A DNA stretch of 64,000 nt from Siphonodentalium dalli (taxonomy: Eukaryota > Mollusca > Scaphopoda > Gadilida > Siphonodentaliidae): contig CP136063.1 in assembly GCA_032622095.1 (NCBI GenBank), forward strand, positions 66,911,897 to 66,975,896, read 5' to 3'. Of this stretch, positions 43 to 63,366 are shown one piece after another. Each line of letters begins with the position of its first letter. The first letter of the stretch is position 1. The notes under the pieces were generated by a model. It saw only the letters and a program-made list of their open reading frames with translations, searched no databases and had not been told where the DNA came from. The translations under genes and the position numbers were made by a program.

Positions 43-618
43 CAATATCCCACAGGCCCCTGGGGAAAATTACTAAAATACCAATATAGACTATACCAGT
101 GTATAGTCTATATGTGACCCGCCATATCAAATCCAGTCGTAAGTCGGGATTTGTTTTACCCTGTGCCAATGCATTCTCTTATATATGCGAGTCGACCATA
201 GGTCGCCTCGCATATATAAGAGAATGCATTGGCCTAACAATTTTTACAATTTTAATAAAAAAATTCTTGTATTCTTTAACAATTTTATAATTTCACCCAT
301 ACAGAGCCCCAGACAAACATAAGTAGACGACACTCTTCTATATGCTTCTATATATGCGTGGAGCTCCCTGCAGGGTAATGGATGTTTTTTTTATTTTATG
401 TCCTAATAATTGTAAGAAAGATTTATTTTTAAAAAATGATAAAAAATTGTTAGGCCAATGCATTCTCTTATATATGCGAGGCGACCTATGGTCGACTCGC
501 ATATATAAGAGAATGCATTGGCACAGGGTAAAAAAAATCCCGACTTACGACTGGATTTGATATGGCGGGTCACATATTGGTATTTTAGGTAATATTTCCC
601 CAGCCCGAGGGGCCTGTG
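43..618. mobile_element. Foldback MITE, family A, copy 1 (paired 67-nt hairpins)
   Basis: The ends GTGACCCGCCATATC (from about 115) and its complement (to about 575) are inverted. Directly inside each lies a 67-nt near-perfect hairpin (166-232 and 455-521), and the second hairpin is the reverse complement of the first. The central spacer is AT-rich. In this copy a weaker outer inverted repeat (about 50 nt) extends to 43 and 618. Short apparent reading frames across it are by-products of the hairpins. It is non-autonomous, and the superfamily is not determined. Confidence 0.8.
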
Positions 619-10565: not shown

Positions 10566-10796
10566 GATTAACCACTTTTGACTCCATATAACAACCGCAA
10601 ATGTAACACAAAAAATGGAAGGAAAATGAAACAATTGAACAAACTCAGTAACGATTTTGAGTTATTTGAAAACACGTGCCCACATACTGGAACTGATACT
10701 GAACGATTATCTTTAGAAAGCAGATGGTTCCGACAAAAATTAATCGAACATAAAATGGATCTCCTTTTAAAGGCACGGATGATCTTCGCGGTGAAG

Positions 10797-11235
10797 TAAG
10801 TCGGCATTTTTTTTACCCTGTGCCAATGCATTCTCTTATATATGCGAGTCGACCATAGGTCGCCTCGCATATATAAGAGAATGCATTGGCCTAACAATTT
10901 TTTATCATTTTTTAAAAATAAATGTTTCTTACAATTTTTAGGACATAAAATAAAAAAAACATCCATTACCCTGCAGGGAGCCCCACACATATATAGAAGC
11001 ATAGAGAAGAGTGTCGTCTGCTCATGTTTGTCTGGGGCTCTGTATGGGTTGAAATTATAAAATTGTTAAAGAATACAAGAAAAAATTATTAAAATTGTAA
11101 AAAATTGTTAGGCCAATGCATTCTCTTATATATGCGAGGCGACCTATGGTCGACTCGCATATATAAGAGAATGCATTGGCACAGGGTAAACAAAATCCCG
11201 ACTTACGACTGGATTTGATATGGCGGGTCACAAAT
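10797..11235. mobile_element. Foldback MITE, family A, copy 2
   Basis: Paired hairpins lie at 10823-10889 and 11113-11179. The right end (GATATGGCGGGTCAC) is intact. The left end is truncated to GTAAGTCGG before the CCCTGTGCC junction. Confidence 0.85.
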
Positions 11236-11420: not shown

Positions 11421-11879
11421 TAAGATATATAAGATTTACTTCCAGAAACACAAATAAAGTCAGTATGCATACATAATAAAACGAGAGGCGATCACGATCG
11501 GCAGATGTTAACCCATCCCATGGCGAAAGTAAATTACTCTGATCGGAATCATAAATGAGAGTTTTGATGTTGAATTATAGAGTATACTGTTAGGTACTAT
11601 TATAGACAATGCACATACCACAAATTATTGGAATTTATGTGTCACTCACATTTATATAAGAGAATGCACTGGAACAGGATCTGTAATGCTGAACCACCAC
11701 AGCCTTGGGTTGGGATGTGAAAAGGTGACCTGGACATGCAATACTTGGTCAAGAGATTCCAATATAACAGCCATCAAGATAAACACATCACTGCTGACCA
11801 ATTAGTATCAATTATACAGCAGAGATGTCAACAAATCACAGGCTTATGTTAAATAGGGCAAGGAATTCAAACTAAAACA

Positions 11880-13240: not shown

Positions 13241-13896
13241 CATGTGGTTCGAATAGTATGCATGCATGTGGTTCGAATGGTATGCATGCATGTGGTTCGA
13301 ATGGTATGCATGCGTGTGGTTCGAATGGTATGCATGCGTGTGGTTCGAATGGTATGCATGAGTGTGGTTCGAATGGTATGCATGCATGTGGTTCGAATGG
13401 TATGCATGCATGTGGTTCGAATGGTATGCATGCGTGTGGTTCGAATGGTATGCATGCATGCGGTTCGAATGGTATGCATGCATGTGGTTCGAATGGTATG
13501 CATGCATGTGGTTCGAATGGTATGCATGCATGTGGTTCGAATGGTATGCATGCATGTGGTTCGAATGGTATGCATGCATGTGGTTCGAATGGTATGCATG
13601 CATGTGGTTCGAATGGTATGCATGCGTGTGGTTCGAATGGTATGCATGCATGTGGTTCGAATGGTATGCATGCATGTGGTTCGAATGGTATGCATGCATG
13701 TGGTTCGAATGGTATGCATGCATGTGGTTCGAATGGTATGCATGCATGTGGTTCGAATGGTATGCATGCATGTGGTTCGAATGGTATGCATGCATGTGGT
13801 TCGAATGGTATGCATGCATGTGGTTCGAATGGTATGCATGCATGTGGTTCGAATGGTATGCATGCATGTGGTTCGAATGTAGTATGCATGCATGTG
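13241..13896. repeat. 24-bp minisatellite, about 27 units
   Basis: The unit is ATGCATGCATGTGGTTCGAA plus TGGT, with scattered single-base variants (GCGTG, GAGTG). It contains two palindromes (ATGCAT, TTCGAA) and alternating purine-pyrimidine TGCATGCATGTG. Since 24 is a multiple of 3 and the unit lacks stops in most frames, long frames appear on both strands. These are repeat artefacts. Confidence 0.93.
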
Positions 13897-15607: not shown

Positions 15608-18600
15608 CTGCAAAAACAATACACAAATATAAAGATGCAAGCATCTGATGCGGTGCCACTTGTAAAGTAATTTAAACACTAGTCCAAAATTGACTATACA
15701 TTGAATATCTTTATTATCCCGTAGATTTTCGACTACTTAAACACATGATCGATGTCAACATTAACATATATTATGTGATATTCAGCAAGAAACGAAGGAA
15801 AACATATGTGTGCATATAATTATTCTATTTTTCAATCCCCCCCCCCCCCCCCCCATTGAATTTGTCAAAAAATAATAAAAATTTATCTCCTTCCTCGATC
15901 AGAGGAGACGAGATGATGGACAATCGAGCGTTGCAAGGCGAACACATGCAACCTAGCTAGATACGCACTGTAACTCTCGATAGCTGAAGAAATAGTTCTT
16001 GACTATAGTTAGCACTCTTTGGTATGCTACGTTCCACGTTGTTTCACCTCCGATTTTTAGTGTTTAAAGATGCATTATCCGAATTAACGATCCTAAATTA
16101 CTATTTCTTTGGCTTCGGGGTAAAAAATATTTGATTCGAGTCGAGGAACCCACCCATCAAAGCTCAGAGTGATCAGATATCGATTTTTGAAGTTTGTTCT
16201 TTCTCGAGATGTGCAATTATTTGTGGCCCAGAAAAGTCGTCAAACGGACGGTCTCGGAAAAAATTGCGGATGAAGATGGATAACTCTAAAATCAAGTGGT
16301 AATACGCGCGGCCAAATTTCGTGATACCCAAATGATAATACGGCCATATTTCGTTGAACAAAATGTTGATAACACGTTTTGGGAAATTTGATTCCATAGT
16401 TGACAGTGGTTAGCATTATTTTGTTGCAATTAATCGATTCTGATAACTAAAGCGTATTTTGATGAAATGTTGTTTTTGTTGTTGTATCTTGATGATATGG
16501 GGACCGTCTGATCGGATTGAGTACCTCTCTGACTATTTCATTAAATCCCATCAATGATTGGGGTACATCATATATCATTCAAACAAACAAAAACTAATAT
16601 AAACAAAATTAATAAAACACAGCACAACGAAAAACAAATAATAAAAAAAGACAAACAAACAAACAAGAACAATGACACAATGGGGTGGCTGTGCGTGGCA
16701 TTGTGAATTCTCAGTGCAGCATTGTATTTCTATGCTGTGTCACTCCCTCTGGGAACTATCTTGTCGTAGTCATGCAGGTCATGCGATATGTCCACCTGAC
16801 TATGCTATATATATAGTGACTTACCTGGTCGACCTGCGGAATGAGGTCCCTATTAACCGTCATCACCCGGAATCTAACGGTTTGTCCAGGTTTATACATA
16901 GGTTTATCCGTTTGAATGAAAGTGATGAAGGCACTTCCGACGACCTTGACCTTCGCTTGGGTTATCGGATTGGACGAATTCCCCTCATTCTGGAATACCT
17001 CCAAGTCATATCTGCCTTCTCTGGAGGGGACTTTTAATTTGTGACACCTCCCCTGACCTTAAAGCAGAAAAGGTGCTGAGGTGAACATTGAGTCGTTGAA
17101 TCGTATATGTGACCCGCCATATCAAATCCAGTCGGAAGTCGGGATTTTTTTTACCCTGTGCCAATGCATTCTCTTATATATGCGAGTCGACCATAGGTCG
17201 CCTCGCATATATAAGAGAATGCATTGGCCTAACAATTTTTTATCATGTTTTTTAAATAAATGTTTCTTACAATTTTTAGGACATAAAAAAAACACCCATT
17301 ACCCTGCAGGGAGCCCCACACATATATAGAAGCATATAGAAGAGTGTCGTCTGCTCATGTTTGTCTGGGGCTCTATGGGTGAAATTATAAAATTGTTAAT
17401 GAATACAAGAACAAATTATTAAAATTGTAAAAAATTGTTAGGCCAATGCATTCTCTTATATATGCGAGGGTAAAAAAAATCCCGACTTCCGACTGGATTT
17501 GATATGGCGGGTCACATATATGCTATGCAATAAGAGCCAATTGTGTTCTATTTGATTCTCCCGTGGGATGAACTGATTGAATTCGAACAGAAATACAAAA
17601 AACTCAAATCGCACCTAGTCATGCATGTGACATCTTAACCCCTTTTATTTATTTGTTATAATTGAGTCGACACCTTGTGGTGGTCGTCAGTGTGTGAAAC
17701 CGGCATTTATATCTGAGCTTGTTGCATTCTTGAAGGTCGGTCATTCGGCTGCTGCTTAAGTTCCAGTGCTTTCATTTGCAATAAGCGAGATTCAGCTCCG
17801 TTCTGTGGTTTAATAGATTGTTCCAGTCCCGGTTCCGTGGTTTTAGTGCTACTGATCAAAGTTTTGGAGTAGCATTTCCATATATCGAGCTCTTGAATTA
17901 TTCATGACTTCTATATATGGAATGCTACTCCAAAACTTATTACAAAACTACTTCAAAACCTGTAGAACTAAAACCACGGAACCGGACCTGGTAAATCCAA
18001 TATGGCCGCGAGTTAGTGACAGGACGTTCCATTCCCACCTTTATGAAGAAAAAAATCACGCCCATTATAATAGGGTTTATATATCGGTTTGAAGTAAGAT
18101 CTGGTGCAGTTATGCCATAAACATTCTGTTTTTTCGGTTAAACGCATACTGATTATGTTGATTTTATGGAAATGTTTAATCACTGTTCGACGCGTAAGCT
18201 ACATATTTGATATCAGGTTCTCACCTTCTTCATATAAGAACTCTTGTGAAGTGTTATAGGATTTGGATTTTTGCCATTTCAACAACAAGATAAACGAGAC
18301 GTCGTCTTCATATCCATCGAGAGTTGCGCAGAATTTTTCGTCTGCACCGATCCTTAACGTCCGAGGAAACGTAAACAGGAATTTTCTGAAAAAACAAAAA
18401 CAAAAGCATGTTATGCGTGTGGTACAAGGGGGAGTGAGGGAAGCAGCACCCCAAATGTTTTGAAAGCTCAAAATTCGGGCAATTTTCGGGCAAATTGGAG
18501 ATATTTGCGGTCAAATTCGGGTAAATTGAATGGTATTTCTGGGGAAATTGTGGAAAATTACAGTATTTTTAAAATTTCTGCCTAAATTACACATATTTAT

Positions 18601-21179: not shown

Positions 21180-22095
21180 GCACGGGAAAACCCTATAGAT
21201 CATGACACGAAGCTCTACTCTGGCTAACGCCCGAACGCCCGTATAGAGATCATATTCCACCAGTACAAAACCTTGGAACTTTTTGAAGTTTTGACAGGAA
21301 ACCTTATAAAGTGGGAAAACAACATGGGGAATATATTTCTTAGTTACTATATATGTATCTTAATAATCTAATTCACTACATGTGAAGGTCCCAACTAGAA
21401 ATTCATTCTTTTCTGTGACTTGTGTGAGCCGATATCGCAATAAACATTCAATTAATTACCCTGGAGAAATTTCATAACTGTAAGAAACGCAAAGCAAAAT
21501 CGCTCAGTGTCACTTTAACCCTTTACCCAACAAAACGGCCAAATAAAGCTTCAACAGCCTAAAATATCTTCGGTCTGTCTCAATAGAACCATACAAATAT
21601 GGATATCATTGGAACCGGCTCCTTGACCACATTGTGATAGTTACAGTTATGCCCTGTGCCAATGCATTCTCTTATTCGCATATATAAGAGAATGCATTGG
21701 CCTAAAAACATTTTTTAACAATTTTTATATTTTTCTACAAATCTTTGACAATTTTATCATTTTTAATATGTGTTAAGCCAATGCATTCTCTTATATATGC
21801 GAGGCGACCTATGGTCGACTCGCATATATAAGAGAATGCATTGGCACAGGGCCCTTCTGTTGGGTAAAGGGTTAATCGTGAAATTCCGAGTTGGGACCTG
21901 CACCTATACAGTGAATTATATTATCAACAGATAATAATAAACACAAATATTCCCGTGTTATTTTTTCAACTCTAAGGTTCTCTGTCAAAACGTCAAAAAG
22001 TTCCAAGGTTTTGCACAGTGTGGAATATGATCTCTACGGGCGTTAGCCAGAGAAGAGATTCATGTCATGATCTAGTATATAATAGGGGAAACCCC
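21180..22095. mobile_element. TIR element (~900 bp) hosting a TTAA MITE
   Basis: The ends are inverted over more than 100 nt: GATCATGACACGAAGCTCTA, then TAGAGATCATATTCCAC, then CAAAACCTTGGAACTTTTTGA on the left, with complements at 21990-22070 on the right. A second inverted pair is TGTGAATGG... / CAATAAACATTCAATTAATT. The family-B MITE at 21519-21871 sits in its centre. A related element lies at 60310-61460. Confidence 0.7.
21519..21871. mobile_element. TTAA-flanked hairpin MITE, family B, copy 1
   Basis: It starts CCCTTTACCCAAC and ends GTTGGGTAAAGGG, with TTAA on both sides (21515-21518 and 21872-21875). The ends and target site fit piggyBac-type MITEs. The left hairpin (21659-21700) has lost its loop, and the right hairpin (21778-21844) is complete. 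Confidence 0.88.
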
Positions 22096-22735: not shown

Positions 22736-24245
22736 AATGAAAGTGTCAATGACACTGTAGCTCAACTTGGAAAGGGAATAATTTAATGTATTACAGTCAA
22801 TGGAGCGATTAGGAATGTAGAAAGTTGAATGTCTAATACTAGTTTATAGACATGAAGAGAAAAGTAAAATCCAAGATGGCTGCTGACGGCCATGTCTTCG
22901 GCCGAATGACCCCAAAATGATTATATCCCATCCACATGTCATCGTTAACATCCATGACAAATTTTATGACGATCAGACTAAATGTACGACCTGTAGCCCA
23001 TGCTAATGGATTGAATTTAGTCATACAAAGAGTAAAATCCAAGATGGCTGCTGGCGGCCATGTTTTTTGGACAAATGACCCCAAAATGACTCGTTCCCAT
23101 CTACATGTCATTTATATTAACATTCATGACAAATTTTATGATGATGAGACTAAAAGTACGACCTGTAGCCCGTGCTAAATGATTTAGTCATACAAAGAGT
23201 AAAATCCAAGATGGCTGCTGGCGGCCATGTTTTTCGGCGGAATGACCCCAAAATGACTCGTTCCCATCTACATGTCATTGTTAATATCCATGACAAATTT
23301 TATGATGATCAGACTAAAGGTACGACCTGTAGCCTGTGCTAAAGAATTTAGTCATACAAAGAGTAAAATCCAAGATGGCTGCTGGCGGCCATGTTTTTTG
23401 GCCGAATGACCCCAAAATTACTCGTTCCCATCTACATGTCAATATTAACATCCATGACAAATTTCATGATGATCAGACGAACAGTACGACCTGTGGCCTG
23501 TGCTAATGGATTAAATTTTGAAATCAAAGATGGCTGCTGGTGGCCATGTTTTTTGTCCGAATGACCCCAAAATGACTCGTTCCCATCTACATTCTAATTT
23601 CAACAGCCATTACAAATTTCATGATGATCAGACTAAAGGTACGACATGTAGCCCGTGCTAAAGGATTTAGTCATACAAAGAGTAAAATCCAAGATGGCTG
23701 CTGGACGTGCTGGTGGCCATGTTTTTTGCCCGAATGACCCAAAAAAGACTCGTTCCCATCTACATGTCATTGTTAACATCCATGACAAATTTTATGATGA
23801 TCTGACCAAAGGTACGACCTGTAGCCCGTGTCAAAGGATTTAGTCATGCAAAGAGTAAAATCTAAGATGGCTGCCGGTGGCCATGTTTTTTGGCCAAATG
23901 ACCCCAAAATTACTCGTTCCCATCTACATGTCAATATTAACATCCATGACAAATTTCATGACAATAAGACAAACGGTACGGCCTGTAGCCCGTGCTAATG
24001 GATTGAATTTTGAAATCCAAGATGGCCACTGGCGGCCATGTTTTTTTCCCGAATGACCCTAAAATGACTCGTTCCCATCTACATGTCAATGTCAACATCC
24101 ATGACAAATTTCATAATAATCGGACCAAAGGTACGAACTGTAGCCCGTGCTAAAGGAAATTGTTGACGCATCACGCACACACGCACGACGGATACCAAGC
24201 CATGGCAATAGCTCAAACTTTACAAAGTAAAGTTGAGCTAATAAT
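22736..24245 (+). repeat. Tandem array of ~165-bp units with conserved ends
   Basis: Eight units carry AAGATGGCTGCTGGCGGCCA at about 22874, 23041, 23210, 23371, 23527, 23691, 23863 and 24020 (spacing 156-172 bp). The array is framed by AGTGTCAATGACACT plus GTAGCTCAACTT at the start and AAGTTGAGCTA at the end, which are inverted relative to each other. Related elements lie at 30357-31275, 46406-46938 and 53520-54115. Reading frames inside are not conserved between units. Confidence 0.88.
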
Positions 24246-29039: not shown

Positions 29040-29431
29040 CCCTTTACCCAACAGAAGGGCCCTGTGCCAATGCATTCTCTTATATATGCGAGTCGACCAT
29101 AGGTCGCCTCGCATATATAAGAGAATGCATTGGCTTAACACATTAAAAATTATAAAATTGTTAAAGAATGTAAGAAAAAATGGTAAAAAGTGTTAAAAAT
29201 ATATTTTTTTTAGGCCAATGCATTCTCTTATATATGCGAGGCGACCTATGGTCGACTCGCATATATAAGAGAATGCATTGGCACAGGGCATAACTGTAAC
29301 TATCACAATGTGGTCAAGGAGCCGGTTCCAATGATATCCATATTTGTATGGTTTTATTGAGACAGACCGAAGATATTTTAGGTTGTTGAAGCTTTATTTG
29401 GCCGGTTTTGGCCGGTTTGTTGGGTAAAGGG
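29040..29431. mobile_element. TTAA-flanked hairpin MITE, family B, copy 2
   Basis: Reverse orientation to the other family-B copies. TTAA lies at 29036-29039 and 29432-29435. Both 67-nt hairpins are complete (29067-29133 and 29215-29281). Internal landmark: TATCCATATTTGTATGG. Confidence 0.92.
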
Positions 29432-29991: not shown

Positions 29992-30215
29992 CAGTAATGC
30001 CCTAAATAATCAACTCCTTGACCACAGCAGAATTATGGGTAATTTTTCAGGATTTAGTCGGAAATATGGCTTGTTGCCATTCATCGGAAAGCTCTCCCCA
30101 AGAGCTTTCCAATGAATGGCAACAAGCCATATTTCCGACTAAATCCTGAAAAGATCCTGAAAAGTTATCCATAATTCTGCTGTGGTTAAGGAGTAGATTA
30201 TTTAGGACATTACAG
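29992..30215. mobile_element. Palindromic mariner-like MITE (copy 1)
   Basis: It begins TA|CAGTAATGCCCTAAATAATC and is complementary end to end (arms about 105 nt) around CTCTCCCCAAGAG. The CAGT... ends beside TA suggest Tc1/mariner-type insertion. Other copies: 33383-33595, 35511-35620 (half), 38655-38820, 39325-39496. Confidence 0.8.
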
Positions 30216-32116: not shown

Positions 32117-32585
32117 GTATATGTGACCCGCCATATCAAATCCAGTCGAAAGTCGGGATTTTTTTTACCCTGTGCCAATGCATTCTCTTATATATGCGAG
32201 TCGACCATAGGTCGCCTCGCATATATAAGAATGCATTGGCCTAACAATTTTTTATCATTTTTTTTAAATAAATGTTTCTTACAATTTTTAGGACATAAAA
32301 TAAAAAAACATCCATTACCCTGCAGGGAGCCCCACACACATATATAGAAGCATATAGAAGAGTGTCGTCTGCTCATGTTTGTCTGGGGCTCTGTATGGGT
32401 GAAATTATAAAATTGTTAAAGAATACAAGAAAAAATTATTAAAATTGTAAAAAATTGTTAGGCCAATGCATTCTCTTATATATGCGAGGCGACCTATGGT
32501 CGACTCGCATATATAAGAGAATGCATTGGCACAGGGTAAAAAAATCCCGACTTACGACTGGATTTTATATGGCGGGTCACATATG
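32117..32585. mobile_element. Foldback MITE, family A, copy 4
   Basis: Both GTGACCCGCCATATC ends are present. Hairpins lie at 32175-32239 (2-nt deletion in one arm) and 32463-32529. The left flank GAATCGTATATGTGAC is shared with copy 3, so the true end may lie a few bases further out. Confidence 0.9.
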
Positions 32586-33380
32586 GGGACCATCAAATCT
32601 GATTGTGTACCTTTAAGTTTTTGCTGTATGTACATGTGATAATATTTCAATGGATGGTATATACTTATTACAATAAAAGATATGAGAATTAAGATTGACA
32701 TAGATCTGTTTTAATAATAATTTATGATAAACTATTTCTACAATATACATAAGGTTGATGCACCACAGATCAATAGAACACAACATATTAGTTTTTTTCT
32801 GTTCGAGATGATCAAAGCAAGAACAAACAAATTTTCAAACTTACCCATTTATAACCCAGTGTTTGAGAATTAAATATAAACTTCCCCAAAAATGTCTTTA
32901 GGGAGAGGCATGCATTCTCTGCATCAGCTTAATAACATGAATTCAATTAAGTATTTTATATTCCGGGATGTGGCTCAAGGGCCTCCATTGACACACCCCC
33001 TTGAACCAGATTTTCCAACAGGTACCTCAAGCTTTTCAACTGTTGAAAATGTCCAATCTGCGACAACACACAAACACACCCACCTATGGTAAAATAAATT
33101 TCCACAATAAAATACTGGTTAGAAAAACTATCATAACAATTTCAACATATTTTTTATCTGAAATGTCAACTTCTAATGTTGATTATATATTATAAGGTAT
33201 TAAAATTTGAAGACAAATTCTATAAGATGTGGGGTTTATGTTTGAAAATTTGTAATGATCTTGTGGGAAGTCCCACTCTCACTGGTATTATCAGTCAGTC
33301 GACAGTTAAGCTTATCTGAATAATAAATTATTCTGGCTATATTAATTAACATCCAGATGAATGTGGCTGAGAAAAAAAAC
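32586..33380. other. No gene recognised
   Basis: AT-rich. 32940-33100 has a short open frame rich in Thr/His without a recognisable domain. Confidence 0.4.
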
Positions 33381-33382
33381 TA

Positions 33383-33595
33383 CAGTAATGCCCTAAATAA
33401 GCGACTCCTTAACCACAGCAGAATTATGGGTAACTTTTCAGGATTTAGTCATAAATATGACTTGTTGCCATTCATTGTAAAGCTCTCAGTGAGAGCTTTC
33501 CGATGAATGGTAACAAGCCATATTTCCGACTAAATCCTGAAAAGTTACCCATAATTCTGCTGTGGTTAAAGAGTCGATTATTTAGGGCACAACTG
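33383..33595. mobile_element. Palindromic mariner-like MITE (copy 2)
   Basis: CAGTAATGCCCTAAAT to GGGCACAACTG, flanked by TA on both sides. The central arm contains CTTGTTGCCATTCAT. Confidence 0.82.
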
Positions 33596-33953
33596 TAGCA
33601 TGCTGAAGTACCAGATAGAGAAGCGGTGTGAAATTCAGAACGTTGGGTGAAAGTTTGAATGAACCGACAGTCAATGTCAAATGATCTGCCCCTCGCAGGG
33701 AGCAGAAAGATCATTGTTTCTATTTTGTAAAATGAACAGTTAGTAATACAAAAACCTCAAACATGCAAATTGCACATTATTTCCTTTCATGAAACATTGT
33801 AACTAATTCAATGTTCCAAAAACTATCATCTTATTAAATAACATATATAATAATCCTAAATCAATTAAATGAAATCATATAAAACAATGTCATCAAATCA
33901 AGAAAATAGACTGAATAAAGATACTCCTCAGACCTTGTATGAAAACACTATTA

Positions 33954-34108
33954 TCAAGCCTTGAAATAGTGTGTCTGTCATTTGCAGAATGAGGTCCCCA
34001 GAGGGTGAATTTAGTGATGCTACCCCGCATAGCGGGCTAGCATAACCAAATTCACCCTCTGGGGACCTCATTCTGCAAATGACAGACACATTATTTCAAG
34101 GCTTGACT
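33954..34108. repeat. Palindrome with GAATGAGGTCCCCAGAGGG arms (best copy)
   Basis: Arms of about 70 nt run from CAAGCCTTGAAAT to ATTTCAAGGCTTG around GCATAGC. Other whole or partial copies: 28567-28935, 35934-36000, 40198-40290, 40500-40612, 42540-42655, 63972-64000. Confidence 0.85.
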
Positions 34109-37868: not shown

Positions 37869-38259
37869 CCCTTTCAGTGCCAGGGGCCGATCTCATCGGC
37901 CCTAATTTACAGCCCTAAATTTTTTTTCTTTTAAATGGGTTGAATTTTGTTTGGGTATGCATGCTATAGCGAATTTAAAAACAAACTGGATATAACCTTA
38001 GGGGCATGTTATAACTCAAAACTATCACCAAGTATTCATAGTAATAATTTTGATGCCCATGAAAAACGTAAGATTCCCTGGCACCAAACCTACAAAATAA
38101 GTCTGTTAAAGAATATAAGAAAAAATTATTATAAAATTGTAAGGCCAATGCATTCTCTTATATATGCGAGACGACCTATGGTCGACTCGCATATATAAGA
38201 GAATGCATTGGCACAGGGTATATGGGTCGATACAAAAATCGGACCTGGCACTGAAAGGG
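37869..38259. mobile_element. TTAA-flanked hairpin MITE, family C
   Basis: The ends CCCTTTCAGTGCCAGG / CCTGGCACTGAAAGGG are flanked by TTAA (37865-37868 and 38260-38263). It carries one 67-nt hairpin (38145-38211), identical apart from one loop base to those in families A and B, although the ends differ. Confidence 0.88.
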
Positions 38260-38654
38260 TTAATACACAGTCATTTCACGAGGTCATATGAGTTTGTATT
38301 CTTGTAAACATTGGGATAAAATATATTTTTCATATTCCATGATTTCTTTCAGTAACAATATAATATTTTCTATGGAATAAACTGGTTTACTGTCACAATT
38401 TTCAATTTTGTTACATTTTAGTACACTTTAATGGGATTTCCGGTGAGTGGTTCAACAACGCTAATCAAATCCCCCCTCCAACATTGAAAGATATATACAC
38501 AGGATTTCATTGTAAAACAGGATTATCCCAAACTATTTCATTAGCTGGTTTTCGTCGAAGGAAACTTGTACTGATGTTCTCCCTGTTTAGTTTGTGATTG
38601 AGCTTTCAAATTAGTTGGTACAAAAAGACATGTATGCATGTAGAAATATCAGAT

Positions 38655-38820
38655 ACAGTAATGCTCTAATTAATCGACTCCTTAACCCGAGCAGAATTAT
38701 GGGTAACTTTTCAAGATTTAGTCGGAAATATGGCTTGTTGCCATTCATCGGAAAGCTCTCGCTGAAAAGTTACCCAAAATTCTGCTCTGGTTAAGGAGTC
38801 GATTAATTAGAGCATTACTG
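38655..38820. mobile_element. Palindromic mariner-like MITE (copy 3, short)
   Basis: CAGTAATGCTCTAATTAATC ... CATTACTG, flanked by TA. One arm lacks the GATTTAGTCGG-CATTCATCGG part, so the stem is asymmetric. Confidence 0.8.
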
Positions 38821-38833
38821 TATGGTACTTTAA

Positions 38834-39150
38834 CCCTTTCATGACAGCTGTGCTGGTGCAGCATTAAATATTCAGTGCCAGGGCATTCTCTTATTTATGC
38901 GAGTCTCCCATAGCAGACAGGAGCTGCGCTGGTGCAGCATTAAAGATCCTGTGACAGTGCATTCTCTAATATATGCCTCACATATATATGAGAAAGCACT
39001 GGCTTACATGGTCAAGGTAAATTTGTTTAGCCAATGTATTCTCTTATATTATAATGTATGCGAGGTTCCTTATGGGAGACTCGCAAATATAAGAGAATGT
39101 ATTGGCACAGGATTTTTAAAATATTTAGAAAGCCAGTCATGGAAGAGTTA
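38834..39150. mobile_element. Diverged TTAA hairpin MITE, family D
   Basis: It starts TTAA|CCCTTTCATGACAGC, and the right end is decayed (GTCATGGAAGAGTTATA). It contains degraded hairpin arms (GCATTCTCTTATTTATGCG, AATATAAGAGAATGTATTGG). GCTGGTGCAGCATTAAA occurs twice near the left end. Confidence 0.65.
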
Positions 39151-39324
39151 TAAGAAGGCATAGAAACAGTGCATACAAACAAAAACATGTTTGACATGTC
39201 TGTCAGTTTCTGGTAGGAGAAAATCGGGTAAAAACTCGCAGTTCAGATTAAATCCAAACAATATCAAACTGCCTTGAATTCTACATGATGCAAAAGAATC
39301 TGTCATTCAGCTGCAAGTTACAAA

Positions 39325-39496
39325 TAATTGACTCCTTAACCACAGTCTCAATGAGAGCTTTCCGATGAATGGCAACAAGCCATATTTCGGACAGAGCTTT
39401 CCGATGAATGGCAACAAGTCATATTTCCGACTAAAGCCTGAAAGGTTACCCATAATTCTTCTGCGGTTAAGGAGTCGATTATTTAGGGCATTACTG
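39325..39496. mobile_element. Palindromic mariner-like MITE (copy 4, rearranged)
   Basis: The right arm is complete to CATTACTG. GAGCTTTCCGATGAATGGC is duplicated in the centre, and the left end is missing. Confidence 0.7.
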
Positions 39497-39677
39497 TAAC
39501 TAAATTATTCCAGACTGAATCAAAAAGAATATATTTCATCAATGCTTTAGTCAGATTGTCAATACATTACCAATGGTGAGAACATGCAAGGATTTCACAC
39601 TTTAAAAAAAAATAAATATAGACGATTAAACATTTTTAAAGATTCAGTCATTGTGGCAAACCTGTTCAAGCCTTTAA

Positions 39678-40141
39678 CCCTTTACCCAACAAACCGGCCA
39701 AAAACGCACAAATAAAGCTTCAACAGCCTAAATATATAATTATATTCGGTCTGTCTCAATAACACCATACAAATATGGATATCATTGGAACCGGTTCATT
39801 GACCACATTGTGATGGTTACAGTTATGCCCTGTGCCAATGCATTCTCTTATATATGCGAGTCGACCAAAGGTCGCCTCGCATATATAAGAGAATGCATTG
39901 GCCTAAACAAATTCTTTTTTTAACACTTTTTACCATTTTTTCTCACATTCTTTAACAATTTTAGAATTATTTCTTACATTTTTTAACAATTTTCATAATA
40001 TTTTTCTACATTCTTTGACAATTTTATCATTTTTAATATGTGTTAAGCCAATGCATTCTCTTATATATGCGAGGCGACCTATGGTCGACTCGCATATATA
40101 AGAGAATGCATTGGCACAGGGCCATTCTGTTGGGTAAAGGG
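39678..40141. mobile_element. TTAA-flanked hairpin MITE, family B, copy 3
   Basis: TTAA lies at 39674-39677 and 40142-40145. Hairpins at 39835-39901 and 40048-40114. It lies about 560 bp beyond the p66 stop codon. Confidence 0.92.
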
Positions 40142-40704: not shown

Positions 40705-46603
<5,899 letters not shown>

Positions 46604-53519: not shown

Positions 53520-54115
53520 AATGAAAGTGTCAATGACACTGTAGCTCAACTTAGGTAGGGGAATAATTTAATGGTTGACAGTATATAGGAAAGGAAAGGT
53601 GCTAGTTGCAATGTCTGACCTGTGCCAAAGGATTTAGTCATGCAAAGAGTAAAATCCAAGATGGCTGCTGGCGACCATGTTTTTTTGGCCAATTGACCCC
53701 AAAGGACTCGTTCCCATCTACATGTCATTGTTAACATCCATGACAAATTTCATGAAGATCTGACCAAAGCTACGACCTGTAGCCCGCGACAAAGGATTTA
53801 GTCATGTAAAGATTAAATTCCAAGATGGCTGCTGGCGGCCATGTTTTTTGGCCGAACGACCCCAAAATGACTCGTTCCCATCTACATGTCATTGTTAACA
53901 TCCATGACAAATTTCATGAAGTTCCGACCAAAGCTACGACCTGTAGCCCGCGCCAAAGGATTTAGTCATGCAAAGAGTAAAATCCAAGATGGCTGCTGGT
54001 GACCATGTTTTTTGGTCGAACGACCCCAAAATCACTCGTTCCCATCTACATGTCAATATTAACATCCATGACAAATTTCATGATGATCAGACACATAGTA
54101 CGACCCAGTGCTGGC
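53520..54115 (+). repeat. ~165-bp tandem element (copy 4), truncated
   Basis: It starts AAAGTGTCAATGACACTGTA GCTCAACTT and has three units (AAGATGGCTGCTGG at about 53658, 53822 and 53988). It breaks off at about 54107 in the CAGACACATAGTACGACC block without the terminal AAGTTGAGCTA. Confidence 0.82.
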
Positions 54116-62224: not shown

Positions 62225-62935
62225 TTAGTGCTAGTAAAGCTACATACCAAATTTAATTTCATTCAGTACACATTTACTAAAGTTATCATCCGGAAACCTC
62301 AAATTGGCAAAAATTCTAAGTCAAAAAGGGACATAACTCTGGTGAAAATTGGCGGGCGGAACCCGAATTCGAATTTGACCTGTGTTTTGCCGGGAGAAAG
62401 ACACATACCAACTTTGGTTCAGATCAAATAATCCAAACTGGAGTTATAGGTCGGAAACCAAAAATGTTAACAGACGGTCAAATTCTAAGTCGAAAAAGGG
62501 CCGTAACTCATGTAAAAATAATTGGACGGAACTCATATTCGAACTTGGCCTGTATCTTTAGCTGGGAAATACACATACCAACTTTGGTTCAGATCAAATA
62601 ATCCAAACTGGAGTTATCGGTCGGAAACCAAAAATGTTAACAGACGGTAAAATTCTAAGTCGAAAAAGGGGCATAACTTTGGTGAAAATTGGCAGACGGA
62701 ACCAGAATTCAAACTTGACCTGTCTTTTCTGCTAGTAAACCCACATACCAAATTTAATTTAATTTGGTTCACTCTAACTAAAGTTATCATCCGGAAACCT
62801 CGGACGCACAGACGCACAGGCTGATTATAATAGTCCTCCGAACCCGTTGGGTCAGCGGACAAAAAGGACCATAACTCATGTAAAAATAATTGGGGGAACC
62901 CATAATGCCAGACGGATGGACAGACTGATAACATA
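62225..62935. repeat. Tandem ~178-bp GGGCCATAACTC-type array
   Basis: The markers AAATTCTAAGTCGAAAAAGG (about 62312, 62484 and 62651) and CCAACTTTGGTTCAGATCAA (about 62410 and 62579) repeat at 169-178 bp. The last unit runs into GGACGCACAGACGCACAGG. Confidence 0.8.
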
Positions 62936-63031: not shown

Positions 63032-63366
63032 CCCTTTACCCAACAAACCGGCCAAATAAAGTTACAACAGCCTAAAATATCTTCGGTCTGTCTCAATAGA
63101 ACCATACAAATATGGATATCATTGGAACCGGCTCCTTGACCACATTGTGATAGTTACAGTTATGCCCTGTGCCAATGCATTCTCTTATATATGCGATTCG
63201 ACCATAGGTCGCCTCGCATATATAAGAGAATGCATTGGCCTAAATTTTTTTTATAATTTTTAATGTGTTAAACCAATGCATTTTCTTATATATGCGAGGT
63301 GACCTATGGTCGACTCGCATATATAAGAGAATGCATTGGCACAGGGCCCTTCTGCTGGGTAAAGGG
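63032..63366. mobile_element. TTAA-flanked hairpin MITE, family B, copy 4
   Basis: TTAA lies at 63028-63031 and 63367-63370. Hairpins at 63172-63238 and 63273-63339, with a shortened centre. Confidence 0.92.

What the first reader, a model, noticed from the sequence alone, without database searches (positions are those of the whole stretch)
37869..40141. One 67-nt hairpin module is shared by miniature elements with different ends
A hairpin starting CCAATGCATTCTCTTATATA (26-bp arms; loop TCGACCATAGGTCGC is itself a 5-bp palindrome) occurs about 17 times. It is found in family A (GTGACCCGCC ends: 43, 10797, 17106, 32117), family B (CCCTTTACCCAAC ends, TTAA target: 21519, 29040, 39678, 63032), family C (CCCTTTCAGTGCC, TTAA: 37869) and, decayed, family D (38834). 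Hairpins are far better conserved than the spacers between them. In most elements two copies face each other and are flanked by CCCTGTG / CACAGGG. Either the hairpin is a functional part recognised by a transposase or processed as RNA, or it is itself a mobile unit that inserts into different MITEs. I know of no described case matching this.
Basis: partly seen in the sequence, partly recalled or inferred. Interest (0 to 1): 0.8.

Follow-up and report, generated by a model that had tools for sequence, protein, structure and literature searches.

The report
Hairpin core shared by unlike MITEs
In this animal genome, several families of tiny jumping DNA elements with different ends carry the same near-identical hairpin cassette inside; a similar pattern was described in corals in 2010, but here the shared part is a hairpin, mostly in facing pairs, and it also sits behind an unrelated kind of end.

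Summary
Nine elements of families A, B and C carry 17 hairpins; 14 are full length, with 6 substitutions in 966 nt. Decayed relatives lie in family D and at 11653.

The hairpin is not a free unit. Wherever its outer flank and loop survive, it has one orientation, CCCTGT outside and a T-rich spacer, shared by A, B and C, inside: a polar module of 120-135 nt. No intact copy lies outside an element.

B, C and D have piggyBac-type ends (CCCTTT, TTAA). A has unrelated ends, mostly with TA flanks.

Counting substitutions only, hairpins vary less than outer flanks within A and B (5/276 against 21/253 columns, p=4e-4), and less than the spacer between A-B and B-C, not A-C.

New here: a hairpin, mostly as a facing pair, behind two end types.

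I read these as modular, CMITE-like elements whose hairpin is probably a cis-acting part. Hairpin-driven gene conversion and recency stay live rivals. No genome or small-RNA data were available.

The parts
113..574 (-). Family A element A1 (complete; reverse orientation relative to A2-A4), two facing hairpins
10796..11232 (+). Family A element A2, left end truncated, two facing hairpins
17108..17516 (+). Family A element A3; the right hairpin lost its loop, one arm and part of the adjoining CACAGGG
32122..32581 (+). Family A element A4; the left hairpin has a 2-nt deletion
21519..21871 (+). Family B element B1 (TTAA flanks); the left hairpin lost its centre
29040..29431 (-). Family B element B2 (TTAA flanks), two facing hairpins
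39678..40141 (+). Family B element B3 (TTAA flanks), two facing hairpins, spacer expanded as a 31-nt tandem repeat (39919-40034)
63032..63366 (+). Family B element B4 (TTAA flanks), two facing hairpins, short spacer
37869..38259 (+). Family C element (TTAA flanks), one hairpin near the right end
38834..39147 (+). Family D element, decayed, TTAA/TTAT flanks, three diverged hairpin copies
11653..11703 (-). Half hairpin relic of D type outside any recognised element
38144..38212 (-). 69-nt hairpin of family C (27-bp stem, inner 5-bp stem, 3-nt loop)
39834..39902 (+). Left hairpin of B3
40047..40115 (-). Right hairpin of B3
32402..32536 (-). Shared polar module in A4: CCCTGT + hairpin + T-rich spacer, homologous to the B left half and to C

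Best explanation
These are non-autonomous DNA transposons (MITEs) built around one interchangeable core. The core is a facing pair of [CCCTGT - 69-nt hairpin - T-rich spacer] modules, or a single module in C. B and C carry it behind two different piggyBac-type ends; D, which is decayed and so probably older, carries diverged hairpins behind a third. Family A carries the core inside an unrelated palindromic shell with TA flanks, most simply because the core entered the centre of that shell, which then became the mobile end pair. Shown here: the shared module, its polarity, the abrupt change of sequence outside CCCTGT, the different ends, and the lower substitution level of hairpins. Inferred: that piggyBac-like enzymes move B-D at TTAA, that a D-like lineage was ancestral, that A arose by nesting or end exchange, and that hairpins stay intact in source copies because they help mobilisation in cis, for example as a subterminal palindrome bound by transposase.
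For: Outside CCCTGT the sequence changes at once in four contexts: A shell, B left, B right, C. Inside, A right, B left and C share 45-60 nt of spacer; 0 of 300 shuffles reached the score for each of five pairs, A4-B3, A4-B2, A4-C, C-B3, C-B2. TTAA on both sides of B1-B4 and C, with CCCTTT ends; PMC10813416 (passages) calls CCCTT the most conserved piggyBac end motif. Hairpin columns vary less than outer columns (5/276 against 21/253, p=4e-4; cells 5/1033 against 24/985, p=1.6e-4). Coral CMITEs give a precedent for a conserved core under different TTAA ends and for a new element made by nesting (PMC2872659: abstract, first part of Results, CMITE-IN section, Discussion). piggyBac ends hold identical 19-bp palindromic repeats placed asymmetrically, and the palindrome is bound by C-terminal cysteine-rich domains (PMC11707139, passages); in B the hairpins also lie at unequal distances from the two ends (about 149 and 26 nt).
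Against: No transposase was identified; only four proteins were scanned against Pfam and none matched one. No hairpin-free copy of A, B or C was found in the window, so nesting is not demonstrated. A role in piggyBac transposition would not explain family A, whose ends are of another type. C has only one hairpin. The core in A is bounded by TA on both sides, but B shows no duplication at the same place. For A-C the hairpin is not better conserved than the spacer (1/69 against 2/45, p=0.34). Three of 17 hairpins carry deletions, which the substitution tests ignore.
Confidence: 0.55

Rival explanations
1. Hairpin-driven gene conversion. The perfect palindrome extrudes, is cut, and is repaired from other hairpin copies. 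This homogenises hairpins across families and moves the module between elements with different ends, with no selection on the hairpin. (Compatible with the modular anatomy above; it replaces the cis-function step.)
For: Hairpins are identical in consensus between A and B while the spacer differs at 7/54, 9/56 and 11/60 positions. Two of 17 hairpins show large internal deletions, as expected of a palindrome that is cut or slipped over. The decayed D hairpins have diverged from one another and from A-C.
Against: The outer edge of the shared module lies at the same base in four contexts, whereas conversion tracts should end at varied places. One hairpin of B4 carries three unconverted substitutions.
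Confidence: 0.2
2. Recent common history only. One MITE lineage changed ends a short time before A, B and C amplified; the hairpin looks conserved because everything is young, and the spacer looks diverged because T-rich repeats change fast.
For: A and C differ little in the spacer (2/45 plus 7 gap columns) and the hairpin difference is not significant. The spacer is T-rich and repeats in tandem in B3.
Against: Outer flanks within families also vary more than hairpins (21/253 against 5/276 columns). A-B and B-C spacer divergence exceeds hairpin divergence (p 0.0001-0.01).
Confidence: 0.2
3. The hairpin is itself a mobile element that inserts into different MITEs.
For: Related hairpins lie behind four types of end.
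Against: Fixed polarity, linked CCCTGT and spacer, no convincing target duplication; 38 of 39 arm matches lie inside ten elements and the one outside is a decayed half.
Confidence: 0.04
4. The hairpin is transcribed and processed as a small-RNA precursor (microRNA or siRNA), and is conserved for that.
For: Size and perfect stem suit a Dicer substrate in principle (the family C hairpin folds at -37.6 kcal/mol as DNA, z -13.8). The whole A4 element folds as RNA at -276.9 kcal/mol, z -34.9.
Against: No Rfam family reached its gathering score in the window. The six substitutions in full-length A-C hairpins change one side only, by inspection, so none is compensatory. No expression data.
Confidence: 0.06

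Closest known systems
CMITE and CMITE-IN families of Acropora corals (PMC2872659; abstract, first part of Results, CMITE-IN section and Discussion read)
   Same: Several TTAA MITE families with CC[C/T]T-type ends differ in TIRs but share a highly conserved internal region; a further mobile family arose by insertion of a CMITE into another sequence.
   Different: CMITEs are about 100 bp with a 75-nt internal region, and the words hairpin and palindrom do not occur in the main text. Here elements are 314-464 bp, the conserved part is a hairpin, usually in facing pairs, and it also occurs behind non-TTAA ends. Sequence homology could not be tested.
piggyBac and piggyBat transposon ends (PMC11707139, passages)
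   Same: TTAA elements with subterminal palindromic sequences; in piggyBac they lie at unequal distances from the two ends, as the B hairpins do.
   Different: 19-bp or shorter palindromes, not 69-nt hairpins; family A lacks piggyBac-type ends.
Repetitive hairpin-forming elements of sponge mitochondria (PMC2800124, abstract and outline)
   Same: Repeated hairpins that spread in a genome.
   Different: Those are described as inserting into mitochondrial intergenic regions; here intact hairpins were seen only inside longer elements.
MADE1-type palindromic MITEs (recalled, from no call)
   Same: Short hairpin-like sequence.
   Different: There the hairpin is the whole element with its own target duplication; here it is internal.

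Membership tests
piggyBac-type MITE (B, C, D) | TTAA target duplication | tested here: met
   B1-B4 and C have TTAA on both sides; D has TTAA/TTAT
piggyBac-type MITE (B, C, D) | CC[C/T]T termini | tested here: met
   CCCTTT at both ends of B and C; D has CCCTTT on the left and a degraded CTCTTC on the right
piggyBac-type MITE (B, C, D) | Mobilised by a piggyBac-like transposase | not testable with these tools
   no genome held
piggyBac-type MITE (family A) | TTAA flanks and CC[C/T]T ends | tested here: not met
   ends TGTGACCCGCC; flanks TATA/TAT in A1, A3, A4; A2 right flank AATAG, left end lost
Kolobok MITE (B, C, D) | TTAA with 5'-RR and YY-3' ends (PMC9587614, passages) | tested here: not met
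   B and C ends are CCC...GGG, D CCC...GAG
CMITE-like group | Internal region more conserved than TIRs across families | tested here: met
   hairpin at most 1/69 between A, B and C consensus while the ends differ
CMITE-like group | Sequence homology to the coral internal region | not testable with these tools
   that sequence is in a figure, not in the text that I saw
CMITE-like group | About 100 bp in size | tested here: not met
   nine elements with both ends, 314-464 bp
Free mobile hairpin | Copies outside other elements, with own target duplication | tested here: not met
   1 of 39 arm matches outside, a decayed half; no convincing duplication
microRNA precursor | Processed small RNAs | not testable with these tools
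   no RNA data; no Rfam match at gathering score

The most novel reading that the evidence does not exclude
The hairpin pair is a portable amplification module that works independently of the transposase: placed behind ends of two transposon superfamilies it makes a successful MITE, and its own breakage and repair both keeps it identical across families and moves it between them.
Probability: 0.12. Interest if true: 0.75.

Novelty: new variant of a known kind. Interest (0 to 1): 0.42.

Why it matters
How MITEs reach high copy number, and why some internal sequences are kept while the ends change, is open; the coral paper left the origin of its conserved core unexplained (PMC2872659, Discussion). 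A core that sits behind two different end types would let one separate the effect of the ends from that of the core, by genome-wide counting and by a transposition assay.

Tried and rejected
Mobile hairpin unit: rejected on polarity, the linked module and the lack of solitary intact copies. Kolobok: rejected on end letters. Known structured RNA: no Rfam match at gathering score. A TTAA insertion of the core into the A shell: rejected because the flanks read TTTA and TAAA.

Relatives elsewhere: the 26-nt arm had no match in viral contigs, a 21-nt core none in genome contigs, the A end none in genome contigs. Shorter patterns in viral contigs gave 35, 3 and 1 stretches. In the 35, hairpin matches are 16-19 nt exact (10 of 35 reach 19 nt, more than independent chance would give) or in one case 23 nt at 91%, each at one place without a second arm; I took them as unrelated and did not pursue them. 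The printed part also shows two AT-rich matches to A4 of 31 and 33 nt; the rest of its output was cut. The other four stretches match the queries over at most 23 nt. Family C against phages gave no match and against plasmids 51 records, best E 0.1, taken as chance. None of six sequence strings occurs in the held papers.

Corrections to my own work: the first A alignment had A1 in the wrong orientation (redone). One search counted only 20 of 46 left outer columns of A because its reference copy A2 is truncated; the 26 dropped columns are identical in A1, A3 and A4 and were added back by hand. A misaligned block of 11 columns in A was counted as one event; uncorrected, one search gives 29/285. 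One search used a wrong spacer count (10/54) for A-B; one search replaces it (7/54). Left out before counts: hairpins A3R, A4L and B1L from the 14, because of their deletions; columns with fewer than three letters; the CCCTGT columns (12 in A and 12 in B, none variable), which were counted on neither side.

Full report
What the window is. The sequence is a eukaryotic nuclear stretch: it has a GATAD2/p66-like exon (P66_CC domain) at 40705-42357 and an MG2 (macroglobulin) domain match at 16756-17058, no tRNA found and no Rfam match at gathering score. No genome is held for it. I take it for a mollusc from general familiarity with such repeats; no call shows this.

The observation. The arm CCAATGCATTCTCTTATATA is found 39 times with up to 3 mismatches against 0.03 expected; 38 lie inside ten elements and one, at 11653, is a decayed half. 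Families A, B and C hold 17 hairpins. Each full copy is 69 nt with a 27-bp stem and an inner 5-bp stem (three A-C hairpins folded). Fourteen full copies hold 6 substitutions in 966 nt: none in the six from A, five in the seven from B, one in C. Two others lost part of the palindrome (A3 right, B1 left) and one lost 2 nt (A4 left). Family D has three diverged copies (the third is a half).

The shared unit is larger than the hairpin and polar. In 16 of 17 A-C copies CCCTGT lies on the outer side; the exception, A3 right, has lost that part. The asymmetric loop reads the same way from the outside in the 15 copies that keep it. The inner side begins CTAA, CTTA or TTTAA. Outside CCCTGT the sequence differs at once between A, B left, B right and C. 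On the inner side the spacers of A right, B left and C are homologous over 45-60 nt: 0 of 300 shuffles reached the score for each of the pairs A4-B3, A4-B2, A4-C, C-B3 and C-B2. The A4-B3 match is to an inner unit of the tandemly expanded B3 spacer, not the one next to the hairpin. Ten other spacer pairs were compared: A4L-A4R also exceeded all shuffles; A4L-C, A4L-B3, A4R-B3R, A4R-B2R, C-B2R and the four D pairs did not.

The ends. B1-B4 and C have TTAA on both sides and CCCTTT ends. D has TTAA on one side and TTAT on the other. A1, A3 and A4 run from TGTGACCCGCC to GGCGGGTCACA between TATA and TAT; A2 has lost its left end and its right flank reads AATAG, so a TA duplication is likely but rests on three copies. 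In A the core is bounded by ...TTTTA and TAAAA..., and the two outer parts are inverted copies of each other (identical but for one base of length in A3, 1 difference in A1, 2 and one base of length in A4). This would suit insertion of the core at the central TA of a palindromic shell, but no empty shell was seen in the window and B shows no duplication at the same place. Ten query segments of A-D were searched outside the ten elements: the hits were three short matches of the AT-rich A spacer and the D-type relic at 11653-11703; end motifs were also scanned.

Conservation, substitutions only. Within A, 0 of 138 hairpin columns vary against 19 of 311 flank columns, counting a misaligned block of 11 columns as one (p=8e-4), or 6 of 92 outer columns (p=0.004). 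Within B, 5 of 138 hairpin columns vary against 15 of 161 outer columns (p=0.04) or 30 of 234 flank columns (p=0.002). Pooled against outer flanks: 5/276 against 21/253 columns, p=4e-4. Between families the consensus hairpins of A and B are identical, while spacers differ at 7/54, 9/56 and 11/60 positions (p 0.0025 to 0.0001); B-C 8/48 and 6/40 against 1/69 (p 0.003 and 0.01); A-C 2/45 against 1/69 (p=0.34). The tests treat columns as independent, are not corrected for their number, rest on few copies, and ignore deletions, which 3 of 17 hairpins carry; T-rich spacers may also change fast. The contrast is moderate evidence only.

Mechanism. A cis-acting role in source copies would explain why hairpins vary less than flanks while single inserted copies still collect changes (B3, B4). 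piggyBac ends hold identical 19-bp palindromic sequences placed asymmetrically, and the palindrome is bound by C-terminal cysteine-rich domains (PMC11707139, passages), which makes a subterminal palindrome in B, C and D plausible. Family A, with other ends, does not fit a piggyBac-only role; there the core may be a passenger, a host-factor site, or kept by conversion. Hairpin breakage with repair from other copies would explain identity across families and the two large deletions, but not the sharp common outer edge. These alternatives cannot be separated without the genome.

What is known. Coral CMITEs (PMC2872659: abstract, first part of Results, CMITE-IN section and Discussion read) are TTAA MITEs with different CC[C/T]T-type TIRs around a 75-nt internal region more conserved than the TIRs, and CMITE-IN is a mobile element made by insertion of a CMITE into another sequence. 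The words hairpin and palindrom do not occur in that main text. The present case is of the same kind, with a hairpin, mostly in pairs, as the conserved part and a non-TTAA family included. Nine paper searches listed no paper that, from its title and the start of its abstract, describes this hairpin or a hairpin shared by MITEs with different ends. Three of them listed only part of what they found (20 of 44, 10 of 35, 25 of 163), the library is open-access only, and repeat databases were not searched, so absence from print is not established.

Noticed in passing
13241-13896: Minisatellite of a 24-nt unit, 27 copies, 97% matches, open in several frames.
   Followed up: no
22863-24157 and 53626-54105: Two arrays whose roughly 164-nt repeat units share sequence, about 30 kb apart.
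   Followed up: no
29994-30213, 33380-33598, 38653-38823, 39385-39501: Another palindromic repeat family (ends like ACAGTAATGC) with inverted arms 89-98% complementary; copies lie on both sides of the D element.
   Followed up: partly
33954-34106, also 28565, 35937, 40198: A further palindromic repeat family sharing the letters GGTCCCCAGAGGG; one copy has 75-nt arms, 95% complementary, with 3 nt between.
   Followed up: no
40705-42357: GATAD2/p66-like exon with long glutamine runs.
   Followed up: partly
240-272: A1 differs from A2-A4 by a short block in its AT-rich spacer that may be a local inversion or template switch.
   Followed up: no
62310-62755 and 44402-44893: Short satellite-like arrays of 170-nt and 156-nt units.
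   Followed up: no
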